This document shows, in pieces, positions 16,847 through 29,774 of a DNA stretch of 38,509 nucleotides. Source of the stretch: a virus; the IMG/VR virus record IMGVR_UViG_3300042731_003739, positions 1 to 38,509 of that record, one strand, 5' to 3'. A model generated the notes under the pieces. That model saw only the letters and a list, made by a program, of their open reading frames with translations. It was not told where the DNA came from and did no database searches. Positions within the stretch are counted from its first letter, which is position 1. Each line of letters begins with the position of its first letter. The translations under genes and the position numbers were made by a program.

Positions 16847-17080
16847 TCAGCGGTGAACCACGACCGCCATGAAGGGAGGCACCTTCCTCTCCTCCTTCGT
16901 CCCCCGGCGGCGCCCATCGGCGTCGTAGGTCACCCGCTGGACGACCAGTGGGGGGCCGGCGGAGACCACCTTCCCAACGCTCAGGCCCTCCCCCATCTGG
17001 GGGAAGGCCACGAGAGCGCCAGGGGTGATCGGCCAGCCGAGGATGTCCCTGACAATGAAGTCCTGTGAGTCAGTCGCCAC
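16847..17080 (-). CDS. Unknown small beta-rich protein
   Basis: 77 residues on the minus strand. The pattern ITPGALVAFPQMGEGLSVGK, then PLVVQRVTYDADGRRRGTKE and PPFMAVVVHR, is that of a short beta-barrel (SH3- or KOW-like), as in many phage accessory proteins; no family is recognised. It overlaps the end of the upstream minus gene by 11 nt, so it is the last gene of that operon. Confidence 0.65.
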   Translation of the reverse strand: MATDSQDFIVRDILGWPITPGALVAFPQMGEGLSVGKVVSAGPPLVVQRVTYDADGRRRGTKEERKVPPFMAVVVHR

Positions 17081-17366
17081 GGTCGTCTACCGGGGCATCT
17101 GACTGTGAGGACTTCTTCGCCTGGGCCTCCTGGGCCGCGACCAGTAGGTGCATGGGGACGCCCTGCTCCAGGAACGCCTCCAGGTCGGCTCGCGCCGCCT
17201 CGCGCATCTCGGGAGGCAGCTGGTCGAACTGCCGCTTCATCGCCCGGTAGCGCGACTTGACGCCCTGCGGGGTCTCCCCCGTGGCGGCCTTGAACTCGTC
17301 CGCCAGCCGTGCCGCGACCAGGCGCAGCAGCGTGGAGGACGAGCGACGCTCCCGGTGGGGTACCAT
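17070..17366 (-). CDS. Unknown small helical protein
   Basis: 98 residues, starting at the ATG whose first four bases (ATGA) overlap the stop of the zinc-ribbon/MazG-like gene. Mostly helical and charged (LLRLVAARLADEFKAATGE, then PPEMREAARADLEAFLEQG), soluble, no motif recognised. The open frame extends much further upstream, but that part is an antisense-style Gly/Arg-rich reading of the neighbouring gene and is rejected. Confidence 0.65.
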   Translation of the reverse strand: MVPHRERRSSSTLLRLVAARLADEFKAATGETPQGVKSRYRAMKRQFDQLPPEMREAARADLEAFLEQGVPMHLLVAAQEAQAKKSSQSDAPVDDRGD

Positions 17367-18721
17367 CAGGGCGTCTCCTGGTCGTCCAGGTAGGCTTCGG
17401 TCTCCTCCGCCAGCGTCGGGCCGTCCGGCTCCTCGTCGAGTTCTGGGAAGAGAATCGGCTGTTGCGCCGCTGTGTGCGGAAGATGCCGCAGCAGTTCGGC
17501 GGCCTCCTCGGGGCCGAGCGCCTGCTCCAGCACCTCTTTGGTGACCACGAACGTCCTGTCCTCCATCGGGACCGCGTTCGCGTCCAGGATCTCGACCGCC
17601 TTCTTGATAGCCTCGGCACCCGAATCCGTGGCCTCTTCGGCTCCAGACCCGAACAGCGTGGGTGCAGCGCGCTCCACGATTGCGTCGATGTCGTCGACAG
17701 GTTCCTCGGACGTGTCGACGGAATCCACTTCCATCACCGCTTCCGAAGCCCGCGACTTCCGCACGTCGTCCAGAGACGGCTCCCCGGCCTCGACCTCGAT
17801 GGTGTCCTCGCCCAGGAACTTGGCCAGGCGGCCTCGCTCCGCGTCCTGGATCAGCGGGTGGTCCGGCCCCATCTTGCGCTCGCCCAGGATCGCCCGGCCG
17901 GCCTTTGAGAGGGACAACAGGCGGATCGCCTGCTCCTCCTCGGCCATCTCCTGGAGAAAGTCCGACCGCGCCGTAGACAGGTCGTCCCAGCGCCCGAACG
18001 TCTCGAACCGCTCCAGCGCCCGGTCCACGTACGCCGCCAGGCGGTCCATGGCCTCCTGCGTCGCACGCTCCTGGTCCTTCGCCAGCTGCTCGATGCCGTC
18101 TATGCGGTGGACGATCTGCGCGGCCACAGCTGCCACCTGCACCAGCTCGTGGCGCAGCTTGGCGTACCGCTGCGGCGGCGGCTCGAACGTGACGAGGTTG
18201 CCGCCCTCGGCGATGATCGCCTCGAACTCGTCCCCAGGGTGGGCCAGGTCGTCGTTGAGGCACGCGGCGCACGCCTCCCCGTACTCCTCACCCAGGATCG
18301 CCAGCCACCAGGGCATCCCGTGGTTCTGGGCACCCCACTGAGCGTCCTGCGTCGCCATCTCCCCGGCCACGTCAGCCAGGGGACCCCAGCTGTCGCGCAG
18401 TAGCTTCTCCATGACGACCATCAGGCCGTCGTAGGACTCCGTCGTCATCATGGGCGCCCCACGGGGCTCCATGGGCTCGCCGTCCTTCGGCATCTCTATC
18501 CACTCCTGGATGGCGGCGTGGGCCTTGTCCTGGATGAACTCGGCGACGCGCGCTTCGCGGATCGCCTCGACCTCGTCCTGGCTCAACCACCTGTCTGCGA
18601 CGTGGCTGCACGCGGGGCAGACCACGACATCAGGCGAACCCTTGACGACCGTAGCCGCCACGTAGGCTTCCGCCTGGCACGCCTCGCACCGTTTCCCGGC
18701 GCGGTCTTGGTGATCCTTCAT
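17366..18721 (-). CDS. Zinc-ribbon plus MazG-like nucleotide pyrophosphohydrolase-type protein
   Basis: 451 residues. Start set at the ATG at 18721, preceded by a GGAG site. Residues 12-38 carry two CxxC pairs (Cys12, 15, 35, 38), a zinc ribbon. Residues about 126-205 carry WWLAILGEEYGEACAACLND and LRHELVQVAAVAAQIVHRID. This is the EExGE plus ELVQVAAVA pattern of phage MazG-like all-alpha NTP pyrophosphohydrolases, which bind magnesium through these acidic residues and hydrolyse (d)NTPs or related nucleotides. An insertion of about 20 residues separates the two halves. The C-terminal half is helical and acidic without recognised domains, so the protein is much longer than stand-alone MazG-like proteins (about 100 residues). 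The substrate is not evident. Confidence 0.7.
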   Translation of the reverse strand: MKDHQDRAGKRCEACQAEAYVAATVVKGSPDVVVCPACSHVADRWLSQDEVEAIREARVAEFIQDKAHAAIQEWIEMPKDGEPMEPRGAPMMTTESYDGLMVVMEKLLRDSWGPLADVAGEMATQDAQWGAQNHGMPWWLAILGEEYGEACAACLNDDLAHPGDEFEAIIAEGGNLVTFEPPPQRYAKLRHELVQVAAVAAQIVHRIDGIEQLAKDQERATQEAMDRLAAYVDRALERFETFGRWDDLSTARSDFLQEMAEEEQAIRLLSLSKAGRAILGERKMGPDHPLIQDAERGRLAKFLGEDTIEVEAGEPSLDDVRKSRASEAVMEVDSVDTSEEPVDDIDAIVERAAPTLFGSGAEEATDSGAEAIKKAVEILDANAVPMEDRTFVVTKEVLEQALGPEEAAELLRHLPHTAAQQPILFPELDEEPDGPTLAEETEAYLDDQETP

Positions 18722-18749
18722 TGGGTCTCCGTAGATGTTCCGGCTGGGC

Positions 18750-18959
18750 TCAGTCCCAACCGATGTTCTTGCTCGCGCGTGTCCAGGCAGCCGGGTCGGC
18801 GGCACGCTTGGCGAACATGACTTCCTTGTAGTAGTCCCCGACCGCCCCCTGGAAGATCGTGTCACCCGGGGGCGCCTTGAGCCAGCGGCGCAGCAGCTCC
18901 TCGGTACTCGCGTTGTCGATCCACTCCAGCTGGGCGCGGGTCTCGTGGTCGTTGTGCAT
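18750..18959 (-). CDS. Unknown small protein, first gene of the minus-strand operon
   Basis: 69 residues. The ATG at 18959 is chosen because AAGGAG sits 4 nt upstream on the minus strand; an ATG 33 nt earlier lacks such a site. The sequence has the look of small phage proteins with an ELLRRWLKAPPGDTIFQGAV core followed by a YYKEVM motif. Function is unknown. It is followed after 28 nt by the zinc-ribbon/MazG-like gene. Confidence 0.65.
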   Translation of the reverse strand: MHNDHETRAQLEWIDNASTEELLRRWLKAPPGDTIFQGAVGDYYKEVMFAKRAADPAAWTRASKNIGWD

Positions 18960-19149
18960 TGTGCTCCTTGGGATGAGGTGAAGCTGGCCCACCGGGCCTC
19001 GGCCACATGACCCCTCGGGGTGCTCTGCGGTCGCCCTGTGGGTGGGCCAGTGGCGGACAATACGGTTCGGAGGTGGCAGTATTTCCAGGACACCGGATTT
19101 TCAGACCTCGTGTCCGAGGGGGTATAACGTGGTGCTCGTCGCGGTCGTT

Positions 19150-19181
19150 CCCCCCTTGGGGGGTCCCTTCCGATAGAAGGG
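19150..19181. other. Two adjacent small hairpins
   Basis: CCCCCC and GGGGGG at 19150-19155 and 19158-19163 can fold around a short loop. They are followed directly by CCCTTC and GAAGGG at 19165-19170 and 19176-19181 around a 5-nt loop. Both are perfect complements. They lie upstream of the minus operon starting at 18959, so they would be in its leader or act as a terminator for readthrough from the gene at 19379-20071. Confidence 0.5.
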
Positions 19182-19308
19182 CGATCCTGGCCGCGCGCTG
19201 CGCGGATGCGGGGGAGGGGAAGCATCTGCCGTCGCAAGCTCGCCCCAGGGCAGGCCCCGGACCGGACATCGCATCCGATCCGGGAGCCTGGGGGGTGGGG
19301 TGGGGAGG

Positions 19309-19349
19309 GGCCACGGGCGCCATGGGACGCGCCCTGGGTGCCCGTGGCC
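19309..19349 (-). terminator. Strong GC hairpin after the coiled-coil gene, possible terminator
   Basis: GGCCACGGGCGCC at 19309-19321 pairs with GGTGCCCGTGGCC at 19337-19349 (13 pairs, one G-T), with a 15-nt loop. It lies 30 nt past the stop of the minus gene at 19379-20071. There is no T-run on either side, so it could be an RNA-stabilising or atypical terminator rather than a classical one. Confidence 0.45.
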
Positions 19350-19378
19350 TCTCGGTTAGGTATCTGTTTGGTTGGCCG

Positions 19379-20071
19379 CTAGCACCGCGTGATGCGAAGG
19401 TCGGACAGATCGATGTAGTCGGCCATATCGATGTCGGCCAGAGCGTCCTCGATGTGGTCGCCCCAGGCCAGGGCCTCGGAGATGCCATCGGCGATGGCCG
19501 TCTCCATGTCCTGCCCCTCCAGCTCGTCCAGCTTAGCGTCCAGAGCGTCCAGGCGCCCCTCCAGCTCATCCATCCGCTCGCCATCCTGGCGAGCCTGGGT
19601 GGCGTCCTGGGGGGCGCCCTGGCTCGACTCCAGCCTGTCCATCCGGCCGGCCATGCCGGCACGGGCGGACTCCAGATCGCGCAGCCGGGTCTCCATCTCG
19701 GCCACCATGTCGGCCAGGGTGGCGTCCATGGCGTGGACCTTGTCCTCCAGACCGGACAGGGCATCGCCCAGCGCCTCATGGGTGCTGGCCTCGATCCAGC
19801 CCGGCCCGGTGTCCATGATGAAGGTCTCCGGGTCGATCCGGGAGAGGGGACCGTGGATCCGGTCCCCGGTTCGGAACAGGAAGGGCACGTCGAGAGGGGC
19901 ATGATCCGCCGTCCCGAGAAGGGTGGGGATCGTCGCCCCTCCATGCAGATCGCGGCGGAGCACCTCCCCGAACCAGCCGGGAGGGTGCGCCATGCCGCAG
20001 GAGCAGTCGACGTAGCCGGGTGTCCCGGCCGGAGCGGTAGCGGTACCGTTTTGCGAGTCTCGCAAGCTCAT
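19379..20071 (-). CDS. Unknown acidic coiled-coil protein
   Basis: 230 residues, start supported by GAGGTGAAGC just before the ATG. The N-terminal part is Cys/Gly-containing (YVDCSCGMAHPPGWFGEVL) and beta-prone, up to about residue 95. Residues about 100-205 form a long acidic heptad-rich coiled coil (LEDKVHAMDATLADMVAEME; MDELEGRLDALDAKLDELEG). It ends in an Asp-rich segment with a terminal Cys. The overall plan, a small globular head plus coiled coil, fits an oligomeric binding or scaffold protein; no family is recognised. It is read away from the divergent control region and probably served by the sigma-54-like site at 20138-20154. Confidence 0.7.
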   Translation of the reverse strand: MSLRDSQNGTATAPAGTPGYVDCSCGMAHPPGWFGEVLRRDLHGGATIPTLLGTADHAPLDVPFLFRTGDRIHGPLSRIDPETFIMDTGPGWIEASTHEALGDALSGLEDKVHAMDATLADMVAEMETRLRDLESARAGMAGRMDRLESSQGAPQDATQARQDGERMDELEGRLDALDAKLDELEGQDMETAIADGISEALAWGDHIEDALADIDMADYIDLSDLRITRC

Positions 20072-20137
20072 GCTTCACCTCGTTGTCAAGGATCCGGGGC
20101 GGGCGGGCCGGAGTGGCCTGCCCTGGCACCGGGGGAG

Positions 20138-20154
20138 TCGCAAGAGGCGTGCCA
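20138..20154 (-). promoter_or_regulatory. Sigma-54-type promoter, minus strand
   Basis: Minus strand TGGCACGCCTCTTGCGA matches the -24/-12 consensus TGGCACG-N4-TTGC of RpoN promoters with the exact 4-nt gap. The predicted start near 20128 would give a leader of about 57 nt before the gene starting at 20071. Confidence 0.6.
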
Positions 20155-20187
20155 GGGGCGGAATCGGGCCTCCAGGGCCGTCCGGGG

Positions 20188-20204
20188 TGGCACGAGGCTT
20201 GCAG
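20188..20204 (+). promoter_or_regulatory. Sigma-54-type promoter P1, plus strand
   Basis: TGGCACGAGGCTTGCAG is an exact match to TGGCACG-N4-TTGCA, the RpoN -24/-12 consensus. It is preceded by GTCCGGGG, also present before the second plus-strand site. The first gene downstream starts at 20549. Confidence 0.65.
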
Positions 20205-20207
20205 GGG

Positions 20208-20257
20208 TGTCCCCTGGAGAGGACGCACCTAGAGGACATGTCCCCAGGAGAGGACGC
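20208..20257. repeat. 19-bp direct repeat in the divergent control region
   Basis: TGTCCCCTGGAGAGGACGC at 20208-20226 and TGTCCCCAGGAGAGGACGC at 20239-20257 differ at one base and are 31 bp apart, almost three helical turns. They lie between the two plus-strand sigma-54-like sites, about 65-115 bp upstream of the second. This is the usual distance for an activator site of sigma-54 promoters, so they could be a tandem activator or repressor operator. Confidence 0.7.
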
Positions 20258-20320
20258 CACCCCCAAAAAGCGTGCCAACGGCGCCCCCTTTCTCGGGCCT
20301 TTCCTGGGGGGTCCGGGGCT

Positions 20321-20337
20321 TGGCACGGTCCTTGCAG
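20321..20337 (+). promoter_or_regulatory. Sigma-54-type promoter P2, plus strand
   Basis: TGGCACGGTCCTTGCAG matches TGGCACG-N4-TTGCA exactly and has the preferred pyrimidine (T) just before it. Predicted start near 20347, giving a 200-nt leader before the DUF932 gene. Confidence 0.68.
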
Positions 20338-20423
20338 CATCCGGGGCGTCCGCCCGGCATCGAGCCGGGCACCCTTGACAACGCGCCTGGACTACCCCGG
20401 GGCCGCTGCCCCGCGCGGACCGT

Positions 20424-20514
20424 CCTACCCTATCGCCGGTTGAACCCGAGAAGGTAGGCGCAGCCCCGCGCGCACCCGCACGGCCGGCTTTCCTCTATAG
20501 GCTATCGCCTGTAG
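20424..20514 (+). promoter_or_regulatory. Leader with imperfect repeat, possible phage polymerase promoter
   Basis: CCTACCCTATCGCCGGTTG (starting about 20424) and CTATAGGCTATCGCCTGTAG (20495-20514) share CTATCGCC followed by a GT-containing segment. The second is an imperfect inverted repeat (CTATAGGC and GCCTGTAG around TATC) and contains CTATAGG, reminiscent of the start region of T7-class promoters. This is weak evidence; it may instead be RNA leader structure. Confidence 0.3.
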
Positions 20515-20548
20515 ACGGGCACCGGGCGCATACTCCATGGAGAATGGC

Positions 20549-21592
20549 ATGAGTCACGAGATACAGCAATCGGACGGTCTCGTCCTGACCGGCCAGCCAG
20601 CATGGCACGGGCTGGGGCTTGTGGTCGCGGAAGCGCCCACCCCCGCGGAAGCCCTCAAACTGGCTGGCATCGACTGGACGGTGAGCAAGCGGCCCCTATT
20701 GGCGGTTATCCCCACGGGGAACCAGCCGCCCATGGCGGCCGAGAGGCACCTGGAGGTGCCGTCGGACTTCGCCGTCGTTCGGAACGACATCCCCGCCGTG
20801 CTGGGCACGGTGGGCGCGGACTACGAGACCTTTCAGAACGCGGACCTCGCCGAGATGGCGGACGCGCTGGAGATGCGGATGGGTGGCTCCGTCAAGGTCG
20901 AGACCGCCGGCAGCCTACGCGGTGGCCGCGTCGTCTTCTTCCTGGTTCGCACCGGGGAGTTCGGCGTGGGCATCCGGGACGGTGACCGGGTCCAGACCTA
21001 CGGGCTGTTCACGACAGCCCATGACGGATCCCAGGCCATCCGCGCTTTCGGCACCTCCATCCGGGTGGTCTGCGCCAACACCTTGGCCATGGCCGACGCC
21101 GGGAAGAAGCGCCGAGAGGGCTTCGTCATCCGCCACACGCGGAACCTGGGGGCCAGAGTCGAGGAAGCGAAGGAAGCCCTAGCCGGGATCGCGCAGGATG
21201 CCGAGACCTTCAACCGCAAGGCGCGCACCCTGGCCAACCGCCCCCTATCTCAGGGGGAGGTGCGGGACTTCTTCGTCGAGGTGTATGAGAGCACCTATGA
21301 CCGGATCCCGTTCAATCCGAAGGATGCAGGCGAGAAGCGGCGCCACACGCGCGCCGTCCAGATCGTCTCGTCCTGGCTGGCCAACATGGACCACCCGAAC
21401 CAGCAGGAAGCCGGGGTCCAAGGTACCGCTTGGGCCGCGCTGAACAGCATCACCCAATGGGCCGACCATGAGCGTACCGTGCGCACCTCGACGGTGAGCC
21501 GGACGCCGGGAGAGGCCCGAACCTGGGGCAACTTGTTCGGCTCCGGCGCCGCGCTGAAACAGACCGCCCTGGAGGCGGCCCTGGCCATCTAG
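20549..21592 (+). CDS. DUF932 family phage/plasmid-like protein
   Basis: 347 residues from the ATG at 20549, which has GGAG 6 nt upstream; an ATG 12 nt earlier lacks a site. It begins MSHEIQQSDGLVLTGQPAWH and contains FAVVRNDIPAVLGTVGADYE, RTGEFGVGIRDGDRVQTYGL and VCANTLAMA. These are the recurring signatures of DUF932 proteins, found on phages, plasmids and integrative elements and usually 300-400 residues long. Their function is unsettled; they are often near recombination or replication genes. It is the first gene after the divergent control region. Confidence 0.8.
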   Translation: MSHEIQQSDGLVLTGQPAWHGLGLVVAEAPTPAEALKLAGIDWTVSKRPLLAVIPTGNQPPMAAERHLEVPSDFAVVRNDIPAVLGTVGADYETFQNADLAEMADALEMRMGGSVKVETAGSLRGGRVVFFLVRTGEFGVGIRDGDRVQTYGLFTTAHDGSQAIRAFGTSIRVVCANTLAMADAGKKRREGFVIRHTRNLGARVEEAKEALAGIAQDAETFNRKARTLANRPLSQGEVRDFFVEVYESTYDRIPFNPKDAGEKRRHTRAVQIVSSWLANMDHPNQQEAGVQGTAWAALNSITQWADHERTVRTSTVSRTPGEARTWGNLFGSGAALKQTALEAALAI

Positions 21593-22908: not shown

Positions 22909-22912
22909 ATGA
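22754..22912 (+). CDS. Possible small ORF upstream of the sulfotransferase-like genes
   Basis: 52 residues from ATG at 22754 with GGAC-rich upstream sequence. It is Thr/Ser/Pro-rich (MAPTTGRPLDSTSEPTGSTT). Its stop overlaps the start of the next gene as ATGA, the same coupling used elsewhere in the genome. It contains three copies of CCACCTCCGAA (22800-22810, 22824-22834, 22837-22847) and two of CCACTGGAC. Not recognised; it could equally be noncoding leader. Confidence 0.35.
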   Translation: MEEGEMAPTTGRPLDSTSEPTGSTTSEDHLRRLLPCPSMTTIVGIDLSSVTQ

Positions 22913-23403
22913 CAACATCCAGTAGCATTCCGTTCATCAGAGTGATGGGTCTGCCGGCTTCCGGCAACCGCGTCATCTGGAACCTCATCTGCCGAGCCAT
23001 GTTGCTTGCGCACCCCGAGCTAGCGCACAAAGGGAGGACCGAGAACGTCATCTGGTGTGACGTGTGGCATGGACAGGGGGATACGCAGGTGCCACCTGCG
23101 GGGAGCCTGCGGTACTACGTCGTGCCGGTGCGGTGCCCCGTGTGTCGGAACAAGTCGTGGCGCAAGAAGGGGTGGCATGTCCTGTCGGAAGACGGGATGG
23201 TACAAGGACGGGAGGCGTACATGATGCGCTACCCGGGGAAGGTGAGGTACATCTCGTACGAGGCGTTCGTCGCTGACCCGGAGGGTGTCGGTAGGTACAT
23301 CGTGGAGGACTTCTTGAAACTCCCGTGGCCAGGGTTGCCACAGGGACAGAGCAAGGACCCGAACGGAGAGGTGTTCGATGGGAACGAGCAGTACAGGAGC
23401 TAG
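22909..23403 (+). CDS. Sulfotransferase-like protein, copy 1
   Basis: 164 residues. The N-terminal GLPASGNRVIWNLICRAM looks like the phosphosulfate-binding loop of the sulfotransferase P-loop fold. YYVVPVRCPVCRNKSW sits where the 3'-phosphate-binding Arg and Ser motif is expected. VRYISYEAFVADPEGVGRYI followed by FLKLPWPG matches the C-terminal signature of PAPS-dependent sulfotransferases. The ending EVFDGNEQYRS recurs in the next gene. Such enzymes move sulfate from PAPS to an acceptor hydroxyl or amine; the acceptor is unknown. At 164 residues it is short for the fold. It uses Arg AGG and GGG codons more than the structural genes do, suggesting a different origin. Confidence 0.55.
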   Translation: MTTSSSIPFIRVMGLPASGNRVIWNLICRAMLLAHPELAHKGRTENVIWCDVWHGQGDTQVPPAGSLRYYVVPVRCPVCRNKSWRKKGWHVLSEDGMVQGREAYMMRYPGKVRYISYEAFVADPEGVGRYIVEDFLKLPWPGLPQGQSKDPNGEVFDGNEQYRS

Positions 23404-23914
23404 GGCTCCGCATGTCCTCGTGTCAGGGGACATGTCGTCAGGGAACAGGGTGATCGCGGATCTCGTCTACCGGGCGCTGCGGTTGGAGTACCCGGAGGAG
23501 GCAGAGGGGCAACGGGGGACTCAACGGGTTCGGATCTGGCACGGGGATGGTGCGCCGCCGCCTGTGCCTGATGACCGGGCGGCGTTCTGCATCGTGCCGG
23601 TGCGGGACCCGGTGGTGTTGCGCGCGTCGTGGGAGGCGCATGGGTACCTGAACGACGGTGTGGACTTCGAGAAGCACCGCAGCATGATGGCCCATGGTCG
23701 CCACAGGTTCTTCGCGCGGATGCCGTTGATGCCCGTGCGGTACGTGTCCTACGAGGCCCTGGTGGCCGACCCGGAGGGTGTAGGGCGGAGCCTGGTGGTG
23801 GACTTCCTGGGGCTCCCGTGGCCGGGGTACCCGGCGAGCCCGGAGAAGCCGGGGGTGGAAGAGACCGGGCCGATTTTCGACGGAAACGAGAAATACCGCG
23901 CCCTTCGCACGTAA
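23378..23914 (+). CDS. Sulfotransferase-like protein, copy 2 (paralogue)
   Basis: 178 residues, overlapping copy 1 by 26 nt. It shows the same blocks: VSGDMSSGNRVIADLVYRAL (P-loop-like), FCIVPVRDPVVLRASWEAHG, then VRYVSYEALVADPEGVGRSL and FLGLPWPGYP, ending IFDGNEKYRALRT. Arg and Asp in PVRDP and the following SW are closer to the classical R-D-P-x-S motif than copy 1, which reads PVRCP, so copy 2 may be the more canonical enzyme. The alternative start at Met19 would delete the loop and is not favoured. Confidence 0.58.
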   Translation: MGTSSTGARAPHVLVSGDMSSGNRVIADLVYRALRLEYPEEAEGQRGTQRVRIWHGDGAPPPVPDDRAAFCIVPVRDPVVLRASWEAHGYLNDGVDFEKHRSMMAHGRHRFFARMPLMPVRYVSYEALVADPEGVGRSLVVDFLGLPWPGYPASPEKPGVEETGPIFDGNEKYRALRT

Positions 23915-25360: not shown

Positions 25361-25595
25361 TTCTGACTGGCGCGGGCGGGAATACCCGCCGCTGGCCGGC
25401 AAGTACGGTGGGCAGGGTGTGGAGCCTGCCCAGCCCGGTGACAGGACTGTGCGCAAGTGGGCCAGCTGGTGCCGCGGTTGCGCGCCTTCGTACCACCGCG
25501 GTTGGTGGCGCGGGTTCATCATCGGCATCGTCGCGTCCGCAGTCACGGCGGCGTTGACGTTCCTCGCCGTCGAGTACAAGGACATGCTGTTTTGA
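25344..25595 (+). CDS. Small single-pass membrane protein
   Basis: 83 residues from ATG 25344 (GAGGAG upstream). A polar N-terminal half with a WCRGC pair precedes a transmembrane segment at about residues 58-76 (FIIGIVASAVTAALTFLAV) flanked by WWRG and EYKD, so the N-terminus probably faces the cytoplasm. It could be a second holin-like or superinfection-related membrane protein; this is inference only. Its end overlaps the integrase start. Confidence 0.62.
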   Translation: MKGVTNSDWRGREYPPLAGKYGGQGVEPAQPGDRTVRKWASWCRGCAPSYHRGWWRGFIIGIVASAVTAALTFLAVEYKDMLF

Positions 25596-26416
25596 ACCTC
25601 AAGGAAGCCTGCACCGCCACACTGAACAGCGTCTGGGCTGGTACCAAGAACGAGGAGGAGGCGTGGCGCATCGCCATGCTCTGGTGCGACCACTTGGGCG
25701 ACAAGACGCCGCTCAAGGACATCACCCACGCGCGCATCCTCGGAGCTACTGGCGCCATGCGGGCGGTCATGGTCTCCAACGGGACGATGAACAGGCGCGT
25801 CGCCGTGCTGTCCAAGGTGCTACACCTGGCGCAGGACATGGGCGCGCTCGATGCCGTCCCCAAGCTGCCCCGGTGGCGCGAAGCGGCGCCACGCGAGCGG
25901 TACCTGTCACCGGATGAGGAGGACCGCCTGTTGGAATCGGCGCTGCTCAGCGTCCCGACCGTGTACAACGGGATCATCTTCCTCATCCAAACCGGCTGTC
26001 GTGTCGGGGAGATGTTCGCCCTGACCAGCAAGGACATCGACGAACACCGCGCGCCGCTGCTGTGGCACGTCCGCGCGGAGACCACCAAGACGAACAAGGC
26101 GCGCGTCATACCGCTCACGACGGAAGCGCGTCAGGCGTTGCGACGGCAGCAGCAGATCCACTCCCACATGCCGTGGGGGTCCGCGCTGACGCGCAGCCAG
26201 TTCAACCACGCCTGGGAGCAGGTGCGGAAGGCGGCTGGTCTGGAGGACGTACGCCTCCACGACCTCCGCCACACGTTCGCCTCGCGGCTCGTGCAACGAG
26301 GCGTCTCCATCTATACCGTCCAGCACCTGCTGGGCCACACCAACGTCAGCACCACGATGCGGTACGCTCACCTCGACACCGCCACTCTGGAGCAGGCACT
26401 CACACTCGATTCATGA
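25592..26416 (+). CDS. Tyrosine recombinase (phage integrase)
   Basis: 274 residues from a TTG at 25592 that overlaps the previous stop; AAGGA lies 9 nt upstream, and no ATG or GTG fits better. The catalytic set of the family is visible: Arg137 in TGCRVGEMF, a Lys in TTKTNKARVIPL, His223 and Arg226 in LHDLRHTFAS, His249 in LLGHTNVSTT, and the Tyr258 nucleophile in MRYAHL. The N-terminal 100 residues form the helical core-binding domain. It would integrate and excise the genome at att sites through a covalent 3'-phosphotyrosine. No repressor or excisionase was recognised. Confidence 0.93.
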   Translation: MNLKEACTATLNSVWAGTKNEEEAWRIAMLWCDHLGDKTPLKDITHARILGATGAMRAVMVSNGTMNRRVAVLSKVLHLAQDMGALDAVPKLPRWREAAPRERYLSPDEEDRLLESALLSVPTVYNGIIFLIQTGCRVGEMFALTSKDIDEHRAPLLWHVRAETTKTNKARVIPLTTEARQALRRQQQIHSHMPWGSALTRSQFNHAWEQVRKAAGLEDVRLHDLRHTFASRLVQRGVSIYTVQHLLGHTNVSTTMRYAHLDTATLEQALTLDS

Positions 26417-27329: not shown

Positions 27330-29774
27330 ATGGAGCGACCGGCACAAGAACTGAGCGACCGAGAGATCGCAGTCGAAGGGCGCATGTCACAGATCGGCGC
27401 GGAAGCGTACCGTGCGGGGATCGCCAAGGCGCAAGAGAAAGAGCGCGAGACGACCACCCCTGCCGGACGCTACCTTCTGCGCGTAGCCGTGGGCAAGGTG
27501 GCCCGCGGGATCGAGGACTGGCTCAAGCTGGCCGCCGAGCGGAGCGGCCCGAACCACCAGGCGTACGACTCCATCCTGGACGCCGGCCCGGACGTGGCGG
27601 CGCTCATCGCCTGCAAGGCCGTGCTCGATGCGGTGTCCCGCCAGCGTGGCCTCGTGGCCACCGCCGTCGCCATCGGGCGCCGGGTGGAGGACGAGCTGGT
27701 CTTCCGCCAGCTGTCCAGCATCGCGCCGCAGCTGTTCGGCTGGGGGCTGCGGAAGACGGCACGCTCCGGGTACGAGCACCGCCGCCGGGTGCTGCGCATC
27801 ATGGCGCGCGAGGCGGACGACGTGCAAGTGGAGCCCTGGGCGAAGCGCAAGGCGCTCCGTGTGGGGATGGTCCTGCTCGACATCTTCATCGAGCAGTCCG
27901 GACTCGTCGAAGAGACCGAGTTCCGCCAGGGCAAGAAGACGATCAAGCGGGTGCAGGCCACCTCCGAAACCCTGGAGTGGCTGGAGAAGGCCCACGACGA
28001 CCACGAGTTCCTGTACCCCTTCTGGATGCCGACGTACGACGCACCGCTGGAGTGGGTCGGGATTCACGGGGGCGGGTACCACACGGACTTCCTCGTTCGG
28101 CGCCCGCTCGTTCGATTCCAACGCCGGGCGCACCTCCGGGACGCCAACCCGAACGACTACCAGCGCGCTGCCGCCGCAGTCAACGTGCTCCAGATGACGC
28201 CGTGGGCGCTGAACGAACACGTCTACGAGGTCATGCGCCACCTGTGGGAAGCTGGCGTGGAAGTGGCTGGGCTCCCATCGCGCGAGGACTTCCCGCTGCC
28301 GACCAAGCCGACTGACATCGACACGAACGAGGACCGCCGCAAGGACTGGCGCCGGGCTGCGGCGCAGGTGTACGAGCGCAACGTCTCCGTGCGAAGCAGC
28401 CGGCTCAACGCTGTGCGCACCCTGATGGTGGCGCAGCACTACCTCGGTTGCCCGGCGTTCTACTTCCCGCACCACCTAGACTGGCGGGGGCGCGCGTACC
28501 CGATCCCCTCGTTCCTCACGCCGCAGGGCACGGACTTCGCGCGGGGGTTGATGCGGTTCGCCCACGGGAAGCCCCTCGATGAAGAGGGTGCGCGCTGGTT
28601 GATGATCCACGGGGCAAACTGCTGGGGCAACGACAAGGTGACCTTCGCCGACCGCTGCGCATGGGTGGCTGAGAACGATGCGGCCATCAAGGCTGTCGCG
28701 CACGAGCCACTGGACAACATGTGGTGGACCGAGGCGGACAAGCCGTGGCAGTTCCTCGCCTTCTGCTTCGAGTGGTGCGCATTCCGCGAGACCGGCTACG
28801 GCTTCTCGTCGCACCTGCCCGTGCAGATGGACGGCTCGAACAACGGGCTCCAGATTTACTCGCTGCTGATGCGGGACCCGGACGGTGCGCGTGCGACCAA
28901 CGTGTCGCCCACGGACGTACCGCAGGACATCTACGACGCCGTCGCTCTCGAAGCCACGGACCACCTCAAGTTCATCCTGGCGAACGGCGGCCCGGTCGTC
29001 TACGGGAAGACCGAGTACAACACGAGCGAGCTGGCCGAGGATATCCTGCGGGCGTGCGATGGGCGCCTCCCGAGGCAGGCTACCAAGCGGTCGGTGATGA
29101 CGCTGCCGTACGGCGCCCGCCTCTACTCCTGCCGCTCCTACGTGCGCGACTGGCTCGACTCCGTGATGTCGGAGGCAGAGTCCACGTTCGCCCACGCCAA
29201 CATGCTCGCGCCTGTCGTGTGGGGCGCCATCGAGAAGGTGGTGACCGGCGCCGACAAGTGCATGAAGTGGCTCCAGGAGTGCGCGAAGATCGCCACCCGC
29301 GCGGGTGTCCCGCTGCGGTGGACCGCACCCAACGGGTTCAAGGTCACCCAGGAGTACACGAACTACCGAACGCGCGAGATCAAGACCACCATCGGGGACC
29401 GGGTCCGCTGGTCCAACCTGCGGGAAGACACGGACCGTCTCCGACTGGAGGACCAGGTGGACGGGGTGTGCCCGAACTTTGTGCATTCCCTCGATGCCGC
29501 CTGTCTAACTGAGATTCTGCTGCGCGGTGCCGAGCAAGGCATCTCGCACTTCTCGATGATCCACGACAGCTACGGCACGCACGCGGCCGACGCCGGGCGA
29601 CTGGCGAACATCATCCGCGGCGTCTACGCTGATGTCTTCGAGGAAGACCTCCTCGCCAAGTGGCGGGACGAGGTTCAAGCAACCCTACCCGAAGGTGTGA
29701 CTCTGCCCGCCCCGCCGGAGCGTGGTCCGTTGGACGTGCAGGAGATACGCCGCTCACCTTACTCATTCGCCTAA
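27330..29774 (+). CDS. Single-subunit DNA-directed RNA polymerase (T7 gp1-like)
   Basis: 814 residues against 883 in T7. It contains DWRGRAYP, motif A with catalytic Asp501 in VQMDGSNNGLQ, motif B with Lys586 and Tyr594 in KRSVMTLPYGA, and motif C with catalytic Asp746 in IHDSYGTH. These are the residues of the T7 RNA polymerase active site. The start ATG has GGAG upstream. It should transcribe phage genes from phage-specific promoters that I cannot identify with certainty. The missing 70 residues relative to T7 are mostly at the N-terminus and in loops. Confidence 0.96.
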   Translation: MERPAQELSDREIAVEGRMSQIGAEAYRAGIAKAQEKERETTTPAGRYLLRVAVGKVARGIEDWLKLAAERSGPNHQAYDSILDAGPDVAALIACKAVLDAVSRQRGLVATAVAIGRRVEDELVFRQLSSIAPQLFGWGLRKTARSGYEHRRRVLRIMAREADDVQVEPWAKRKALRVGMVLLDIFIEQSGLVEETEFRQGKKTIKRVQATSETLEWLEKAHDDHEFLYPFWMPTYDAPLEWVGIHGGGYHTDFLVRRPLVRFQRRAHLRDANPNDYQRAAAAVNVLQMTPWALNEHVYEVMRHLWEAGVEVAGLPSREDFPLPTKPTDIDTNEDRRKDWRRAAAQVYERNVSVRSSRLNAVRTLMVAQHYLGCPAFYFPHHLDWRGRAYPIPSFLTPQGTDFARGLMRFAHGKPLDEEGARWLMIHGANCWGNDKVTFADRCAWVAENDAAIKAVAHEPLDNMWWTEADKPWQFLAFCFEWCAFRETGYGFSSHLPVQMDGSNNGLQIYSLLMRDPDGARATNVSPTDVPQDIYDAVALEATDHLKFILANGGPVVYGKTEYNTSELAEDILRACDGRLPRQATKRSVMTLPYGARLYSCRSYVRDWLDSVMSEAESTFAHANMLAPVVWGAIEKVVTGADKCMKWLQECAKIATRAGVPLRWTAPNGFKVTQEYTNYRTREIKTTIGDRVRWSNLREDTDRLRLEDQVDGVCPNFVHSLDAACLTEILLRGAEQGISHFSMIHDSYGTHAADAGRLANIIRGVYADVFEEDLLAKWRDEVQATLPEGVTLPAPPERGPLDVQEIRRSPYSFA

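What the first reader, a model, noticed from the sequence alone, without database searches (positions are those of the whole stretch)
20138..20337. Divergent control region with three sigma-54-type promoters in a T7-like phage
Two plus-strand sites (20188-20204, 20321-20337) match TGGCACG-N4-TTGCA exactly, and one minus-strand site (20138-20154) matches TGGCACG-N4-TTGC. Twelve fixed bases matched twice in about 460 bp is very unlikely by chance, and the sites face away from the region in both directions. T7-type early genes normally use sigma-70 promoters, so coupling early/accessory genes to host RpoN and its activators would be unusual.
Basis: partly seen in the sequence, partly recalled or inferred. 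Interest (0 to 1): 0.8.

Follow-up and report, generated by a model that had tools for sequence, protein, structure and literature searches.

The report
Phage control region with sigma-54 promoters
A T7-like virus of bacteria carries, where T7 keeps its ordinary start signals, a cluster of start signals for the host's special-purpose sigma-54 transcription machinery, and similar clusters turn up in more than a hundred uncultured phage sequences, so this looks like a widespread and, as far as I could find, undescribed way for phages to tie their genes to host physiology.

Summary
Three exact TGGCACG-N4-TTGC sites lie at 20140-20154(-), 20188-20202(+) and 20321-20335(+), with a fourth near-match at 20263-20277(-). 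Shuffles expect 0.04 exact sites in the whole window, and these four are also the window's best sigma-54 matrix scores. They sit in the only long non-coding divergent gap (20072-20536) of an integrase-bearing, T7-like phage record.

The sites form two back-to-back pairs from a diverged tandem duplication. A twice-repeated 19-bp imperfect dyad lies about 90-130 bp upstream of both outward promoters, the usual place for an enhancer-binding protein. No sigma-70-like promoter (16.7-30 kb) and no phage-encoded activator was found.

Scans of viral contigs found more than 100 contigs with clusters of 2-13 such sites, against 1 for a reversed-pattern control. Cellular genomes show pairs only. The clusters favour divergent gaps, and flanks reproduce sigma-54 consensus positions not in the query. 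A T7-type phage fragment (L394) has two such sites directly before its first genes. The nearest named T7-like relatives lack the sites.

Best reading: host sigma-54 promoters that start early transcription, driven by a host activator. Binding and transcription are inferred, not shown. Main rival: a decoy or roadblock for sigma-54 polymerase.

The parts
20140..20154 (-). sigma-54-type promoter element, exact TGGCACGCCTCTTGC; predicted start near 20128, 57 nt before the ATG at 20071
   Evidence: start position inferred from usual -12 spacing
20188..20202 (+). sigma-54-type promoter element, exact TGGCACGAGGCTTGC(A); predicted start near 20214
20263..20277 (-). degenerate sigma-54-type element TGGCACGCTTTTTGG (GC at -12 replaced by GG); partner of 20321 in pair B
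20321..20335 (+). strongest sigma-54-type promoter element, exact TGGCACGGTCCTTGC(A); predicted start near 20347
20208..20226 (.). imperfect dyad TGTCCCCTGGAGAGGACGC, copy 1: candidate binding site of an enhancer-binding activator (or a repressor)
   Evidence: 2 copies found with up to 3 mismatches allowed, 0.14 expected
20239..20257 (.). imperfect dyad TGTCCCCAGGAGAGGACGC, copy 2, 31 bp after copy 1
20141..20318 (.). diverged tandem duplication that makes pairs A and B (20141-20160 vs 20264-20283; 20171-20187 vs 20302-20318)
   Evidence: families D2 and D4
20081..20383 (.). inverted repeat bracketing the region: CGTTGTCAAGG at 20081 and CCTTGACAACG at 20373
20072..20536 (.). non-coding divergent control region
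19379..20071 (-). first gene of the leftward arm: 230-aa coiled-coil protein, unknown function
17366..18727 (-). leftward arm: 453-aa protein, part matching phrog_2831 (unknown function)
16847..17080 (-). leftward arm: 77-aa ORF with no family match
20537..21592 (+). first gene of the rightward arm: DUF932 protein (likely true start 20549)
25457..26416 (+). tyrosine integrase, rightward arm
27330..29774 (+). T7-type single-subunit RNA polymerase, rightward arm, about 7 kb downstream of the sites

Best explanation
The region 20072-20536 is the host-RNA-polymerase entry region of a T7-like, integrase-bearing phage, built from sigma-54 (RpoN) promoters where T7 has its sigma-70 promoters A1-A3. 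Host RpoN-polymerase binds the four -24/-12 elements as closed complexes. A host enhancer-binding activator, probably acting from the repeated dyad at 20208-20257, opens the outward promoters at 20321(+) and 20140(-). The rightward transcript expresses the early block (DUF932 gene to integrase to phage RNA polymerase), after which the phage polymerase takes over; the leftward transcript expresses a small three-gene arm. Shown: the sites, their clustering, the anatomy, the wide occurrence of such clusters in phages, and better conservation of the core than of the spacer in one phage family. Inferred: RpoN binding, the identity of the activator, transcription, timing, and the idea that early expression waits on a host physiological signal.
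For: Three exact sites against 0.04 expected, and the window's four best matrix scores in one 200-bp stretch. No sigma-70-like promoter in 16.7-30 kb. Scanning viral contigs: 55 stretches with a divergent pair at 20-50 bp, 55 at 51-81 bp, 114 with a tandem pair at 104-134 bp, at least 120 with a close tandem pair; the reversed tandem control gave 1. Loci hold 2-13 sites. The 128 loci analysed fall into 68 nucleotide groups, and flanks not in the query show Y at -1 (75%) and W after TTGC (70%) with one site per group. The same divergent pattern in cellular genomes gives 59 loci, all with exactly 2 sites per 400 bp, while 33 of 55 viral ones have 3-8. Neighbouring genes of 150 aa or more diverge in 35 of 67 cluster loci, against 78 of 418 neighbour pairs in the same loci. 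In one phage family the fixed positions are 87% identical, the 4-nt spacers inside the same sites 77%, other sequence 80%. L394, a fragment with a T7-type terminase (37% identical over 544 aa), has two sites after the terminase gene, four TGTC-N8-GACA dyads at 21-bp steps upstream of them, and a gene start about 100 bp downstream. L185, an unrelated phage, has an exact site with a short leader and ribosome-binding site before an operon with a DUF932 gene.
Against: Exact sites are absent from the 5 nearest named phages and from 25 of 26 related virus records searched whole; only L048 has one. No sigma-54 activator gene in the window or over cut-off in 35 cluster records, so the phage would depend wholly on a host activator, a risk for early genes. 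The leader to DUF932 is about 200 nt and structured. One of the four sites has lost the GC at -12. The host is unknown, so the presence of RpoN cannot be checked. The dyad is imperfect and matches no activator site I can name. No expression data.
Confidence: 0.62

Rival explanations
1. Decoy or roadblock: the arrays hold host RpoN-polymerase as stalled closed complexes, either soaking up the sigma factor or blocking other polymerases, and do not serve mainly as start sites.
For: In other phages neighbouring sites are often packed at 25-28 bp in tandem and 18-24 bp face to face, spacings at which neighbouring complexes could hardly all fire; up to 13 sites in one locus; no phage-encoded activator; sigma-54 holoenzyme binds without initiating until activated (established knowledge; PMC4591121 abstract).
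Against: Only four sites here, in two divergent pairs at 48 and 58 bp with an outward site on each side; clusters favour divergent promoter gaps; in L394 and L185 sites sit right before gene starts. A handful of sites could hardly titrate RpoN except after genome replication.
Confidence: 0.17
2. Accessory or lysogeny switch: the sigma-54 promoters work mainly in the integrated or slow-growing state, driving the leftward arm or accessory genes under host nutrient or stress control, while lytic early genes start elsewhere.
For: The phage has a tyrosine integrase; the leftward genes are outside the usual all-rightward T7 plan; in LUZ100 the lysogeny-module promoter deviates from the strict sigma-70 promoters (PMC10134795).
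Against: No repressor gene was found, the strongest site points to the early arm, and no other promoter-like sequence was found before it.
Confidence: 0.12
3. Binding sites of some other protein, such as a replication initiator, packaging enzyme or repressor, that happen to look like sigma-54 elements.
For: Clusters of directed repeats near terminase genes resemble origin or packaging sites; no binding has been shown.
Against: The same 11 fixed bases, spacing and flanking preferences recur in many nucleotide groups of phages, which points to a conserved host factor; the sequence is the known sigma-54 consensus.
Confidence: 0.08
4. Chance resemblance in GC-rich DNA.
For: The genome is 66% GC and the motif is GC-rich.
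Against: Shuffles of the same composition give 0.04 exact sites; the reversed control pattern gives almost none in viral contigs.
Confidence: 0.01

Closest known systems
Bacterial sigma-54 (RpoN) promoters with upstream enhancer sites
   Same: -24 GG / -12 GC elements with N4 spacer, flanking consensus in the viral set, and repeated dyads about 90-130 bp upstream of the outward start sites
   Different: in a phage, in divergent pairs, with no activator gene in the record; the dyads match no activator site I know
T7 early promoters A1-A3
   Same: a small group of host-polymerase promoters before the early genes of a phage that makes its own RNA polymerase
   Different: sigma-54 type rather than sigma-70, and bidirectional here (T7 facts from general knowledge)
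Pseudomonas phage LUZ100, T7-like phage with temperate features
   Same: T7-type RNA polymerase (35% identical) with an integrase upstream of it
   Different: its mapped early host promoters are sigma-70-like (PMC10134795) and it has no sigma-54-type site within one mismatch
Xanthomonas phage Xp10 protein P7
   Same: a phage factor that acts on a variant (non-sigma-70) form of host polymerase (PMC5053324, title and abstract start only)
   Different: an inhibitor protein, not promoter DNA

Membership tests
sigma-54 promoter | GG at -24 and GC at -12 in TGGCACG-N4-TTGC | tested here: met
   three exact sites, one further with GG instead of GC
sigma-54 promoter | flanking preferences: pyrimidine before TGG, A or T after TTGC | tested here: inconclusive
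   met as a trend in viral cluster sites; in this window the base before is C, G, T and the base after is G, A, A (sites in coordinate order)
sigma-54 promoter | enhancer-type sites upstream | tested here: inconclusive
   repeated imperfect dyad in the right place, activator unidentified
sigma-54 promoter | rpoN- and activator-dependent start 12 nt after the -12 element | not testable with these tools
   needs start-site mapping and an rpoN mutant
T7-like phage (Autographiviridae type) | single-subunit RNA polymerase, T7-type helicase, DNA polymerase, exonuclease, internal virion protein and terminase | tested here: met
T7-like phage (Autographiviridae type) | all genes on one strand (typical, not strictly defining) | tested here: not met
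   three leftward ORFs at 16847-20071

The most novel reading that the evidence does not exclude
A widespread class of phages places clusters of sigma-54 promoters in the control gap of the genome, so that the start of infection, or exit from a dormant state, waits for a host stress or nutrient activator; the window is a T7-like member in which the switch also controls the phage's own RNA polymerase.
Probability: 0.4. Interest if true: 0.88.

Novelty: new variant of a known kind. Interest (0 to 1): 0.74.

Why it matters
Sigma-54 promoters stay silent until an ATP-driven activator senses nitrogen, membrane stress or another signal. A phage that starts its genes there would read host physiology before committing. 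Full-text searches of an open-access library showed no account of such clusters in phages; subscription journals and most preprints are not held, so this is not proof of novelty. The clusters give a simple sequence test that can be run on any phage collection.

Tried and rejected
Chance (rejected). A general property of T7-like phages (rejected). A phage-encoded activator (none). A common NifA-type TGT-N10-ACA enhancer upstream of viral clusters (not enriched over other spacings; L394 is a special case). A repeated phage-polymerase promoter near 20430-20515 (not repeated elsewhere). A search for T7-type RNA polymerase in 50 cluster records with phrog_414 found none, but its control did not ring either, so it is uninformative. 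Close relatives by DUF932 or RNAP alone (none). tRNA or attachment-site clue to the host (none). Terminase and portal searches for cultured members of the largest cluster family gave only distant hits. The first all-against-all BLAST crashed and was repeated.

Full report
What is there. The window is a 38,509-base linear virus record, 66% GC, with T7-type RNA polymerase, primase/helicase, DNA polymerase, exonuclease, internal virion protein and terminase and a tyrosine integrase. Structural genes run off both ends, so the record appears cut in the structural block and the gap between terminase and early genes lies in its middle; that the genome ends lie near here is an inference from T7-type layout. 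Three ORFs at 16847-20071 point left and the early genes from 20537 point right; 20072-20536 between them is non-coding.

The sites. Exact TGGCACG-N4-TTGC occurs three times, all within 200 bp, against 0.04 expected, with a fourth one-mismatch site. These four rank first to fourth in a matrix scan of both strands (core weights were approximate recalled values and flanks came from the viral sites, so this is a ranking only). They form two divergent pairs that are a diverged tandem duplication. Between the pairs lie two copies of an imperfect dyad TGTCCCCNGGAGAGGACGC (0.14 expected). Taking the C of TTGC as -12, starts fall near 20128 (left) and 20347 (right), which puts the dyad centres at about -89/-120 and -130/-99: one shared enhancer could serve both arms. 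Copy 1 overlaps the predicted start of site 20188, so a repressive role is also possible. No sigma-70-like promoter was found in 16.7-30 kb.

Wider occurrence. Pattern scans of viral contigs found 55 and 55 stretches with divergent pairs, 114 with tandem pairs and at least 120 with close tandem pairs; these lists overlap. The reversed tandem pattern gave one. The loci analysed hold 2-13 sites, fall in 68 nucleotide groups, and show sigma-54 flank preferences. They lie in divergent gaps more often than neighbouring gene pairs do (gene calls there are rough, and wrong in GC-rich loci such as L185). In a terminase-linked family of 27 loci, 83 sites point away from the small terminase gene and 24 towards it. 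In that family fixed positions are better conserved than the spacers inside the same sites (pairs are not independent). In cellular genomes the divergent pattern gave 59 loci, none with a third site within 400 bp. I did not compare rates per base because the size of the viral collection in bases is not stated.

T7-like comparisons. The five nearest named phages lack exact sites, and so do 25 of 26 related virus records searched whole; the exception, L048, has one exact site and several variants (most ending TTGA) about 8 kb upstream of its RNA polymerase, much the same place as here. L394, a 6.2-kb fragment with a T7-type terminase, has two exact tandem sites after the terminase gene, four 21-bp-spaced TGTC-N8-GACA dyads (also TGT-N10-ACA, the NifA-type spacing) upstream, and a same-direction gene start about 100 bp further on. 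L185 has an exact site just before a short gene of an operon with a DUF932 gene. DUF932 hits near clusters are few (L185, L224, weaker L200, L430), so the link with DUF932 is a lead only.

Interpretation. Recurrence of one host-factor consensus across many phage groups, flanks that match beyond the query, conservation of the fixed positions, and gene starts directly downstream in L394 and L185 make sigma-54 recognition the best reading. What the arrays do is less sure. Start of early transcription by a host activator is favoured here because the strongest site points outward to the early genes and nothing else promoter-like was found. Dense packing in other phages keeps the decoy or roadblock reading alive for them. 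Absence of an activator gene means any activation must come from the host. A speculative but testable candidate is an envelope-stress activator such as PspF, which infection itself could trigger.

Literature. LUZ100's mapped host promoters are sigma-70-like (PMC10134795). Searches of the held library found no report of sigma-54 promoter clusters in phages; coverage is limited to open-licence papers.

Noticed in passing
L089-L216: Sites in phage arrays prefer 25-28 bp and about 43-56 bp steps in tandem and 18-24 bp face to face; one locus holds 13 sites.
   Followed up: partly
L394:1900-2900: T7-type phage fragment with four TGTC-N8-GACA dyads at 21-bp steps (also TGT-N10-ACA, NifA-type spacing) upstream of two tandem sigma-54-type sites, before its first genes.
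   Followed up: partly
L048:1976-2165: T7-like relative with an array of variant sites, most ending TTGA instead of TTGC, about 8 kb upstream of its RNA polymerase.
   Followed up: partly
window 22909-23914: Two adjacent weakly sulfotransferase-like genes that are diverged tandem copies (77% over 94 nt).
   Followed up: no
window 20347-20540: Leader before the DUF932 gene folds better than shuffles (z -2.84).
   Followed up: no
L247-L305: Cellular genomes with a divergent pair of sigma-54-type sites include many alphaproteobacteria (Rhodobacteraceae, Reyranella) and some Paenibacillus; always exactly two sites per 400 bp.
   Followed up: partly
L198:2716-3708 and related loci: A 330-aa intein-like or homing-type protein family sits beside terminase genes in several cluster phages (judged by eye, not tested).
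   Followed up: no
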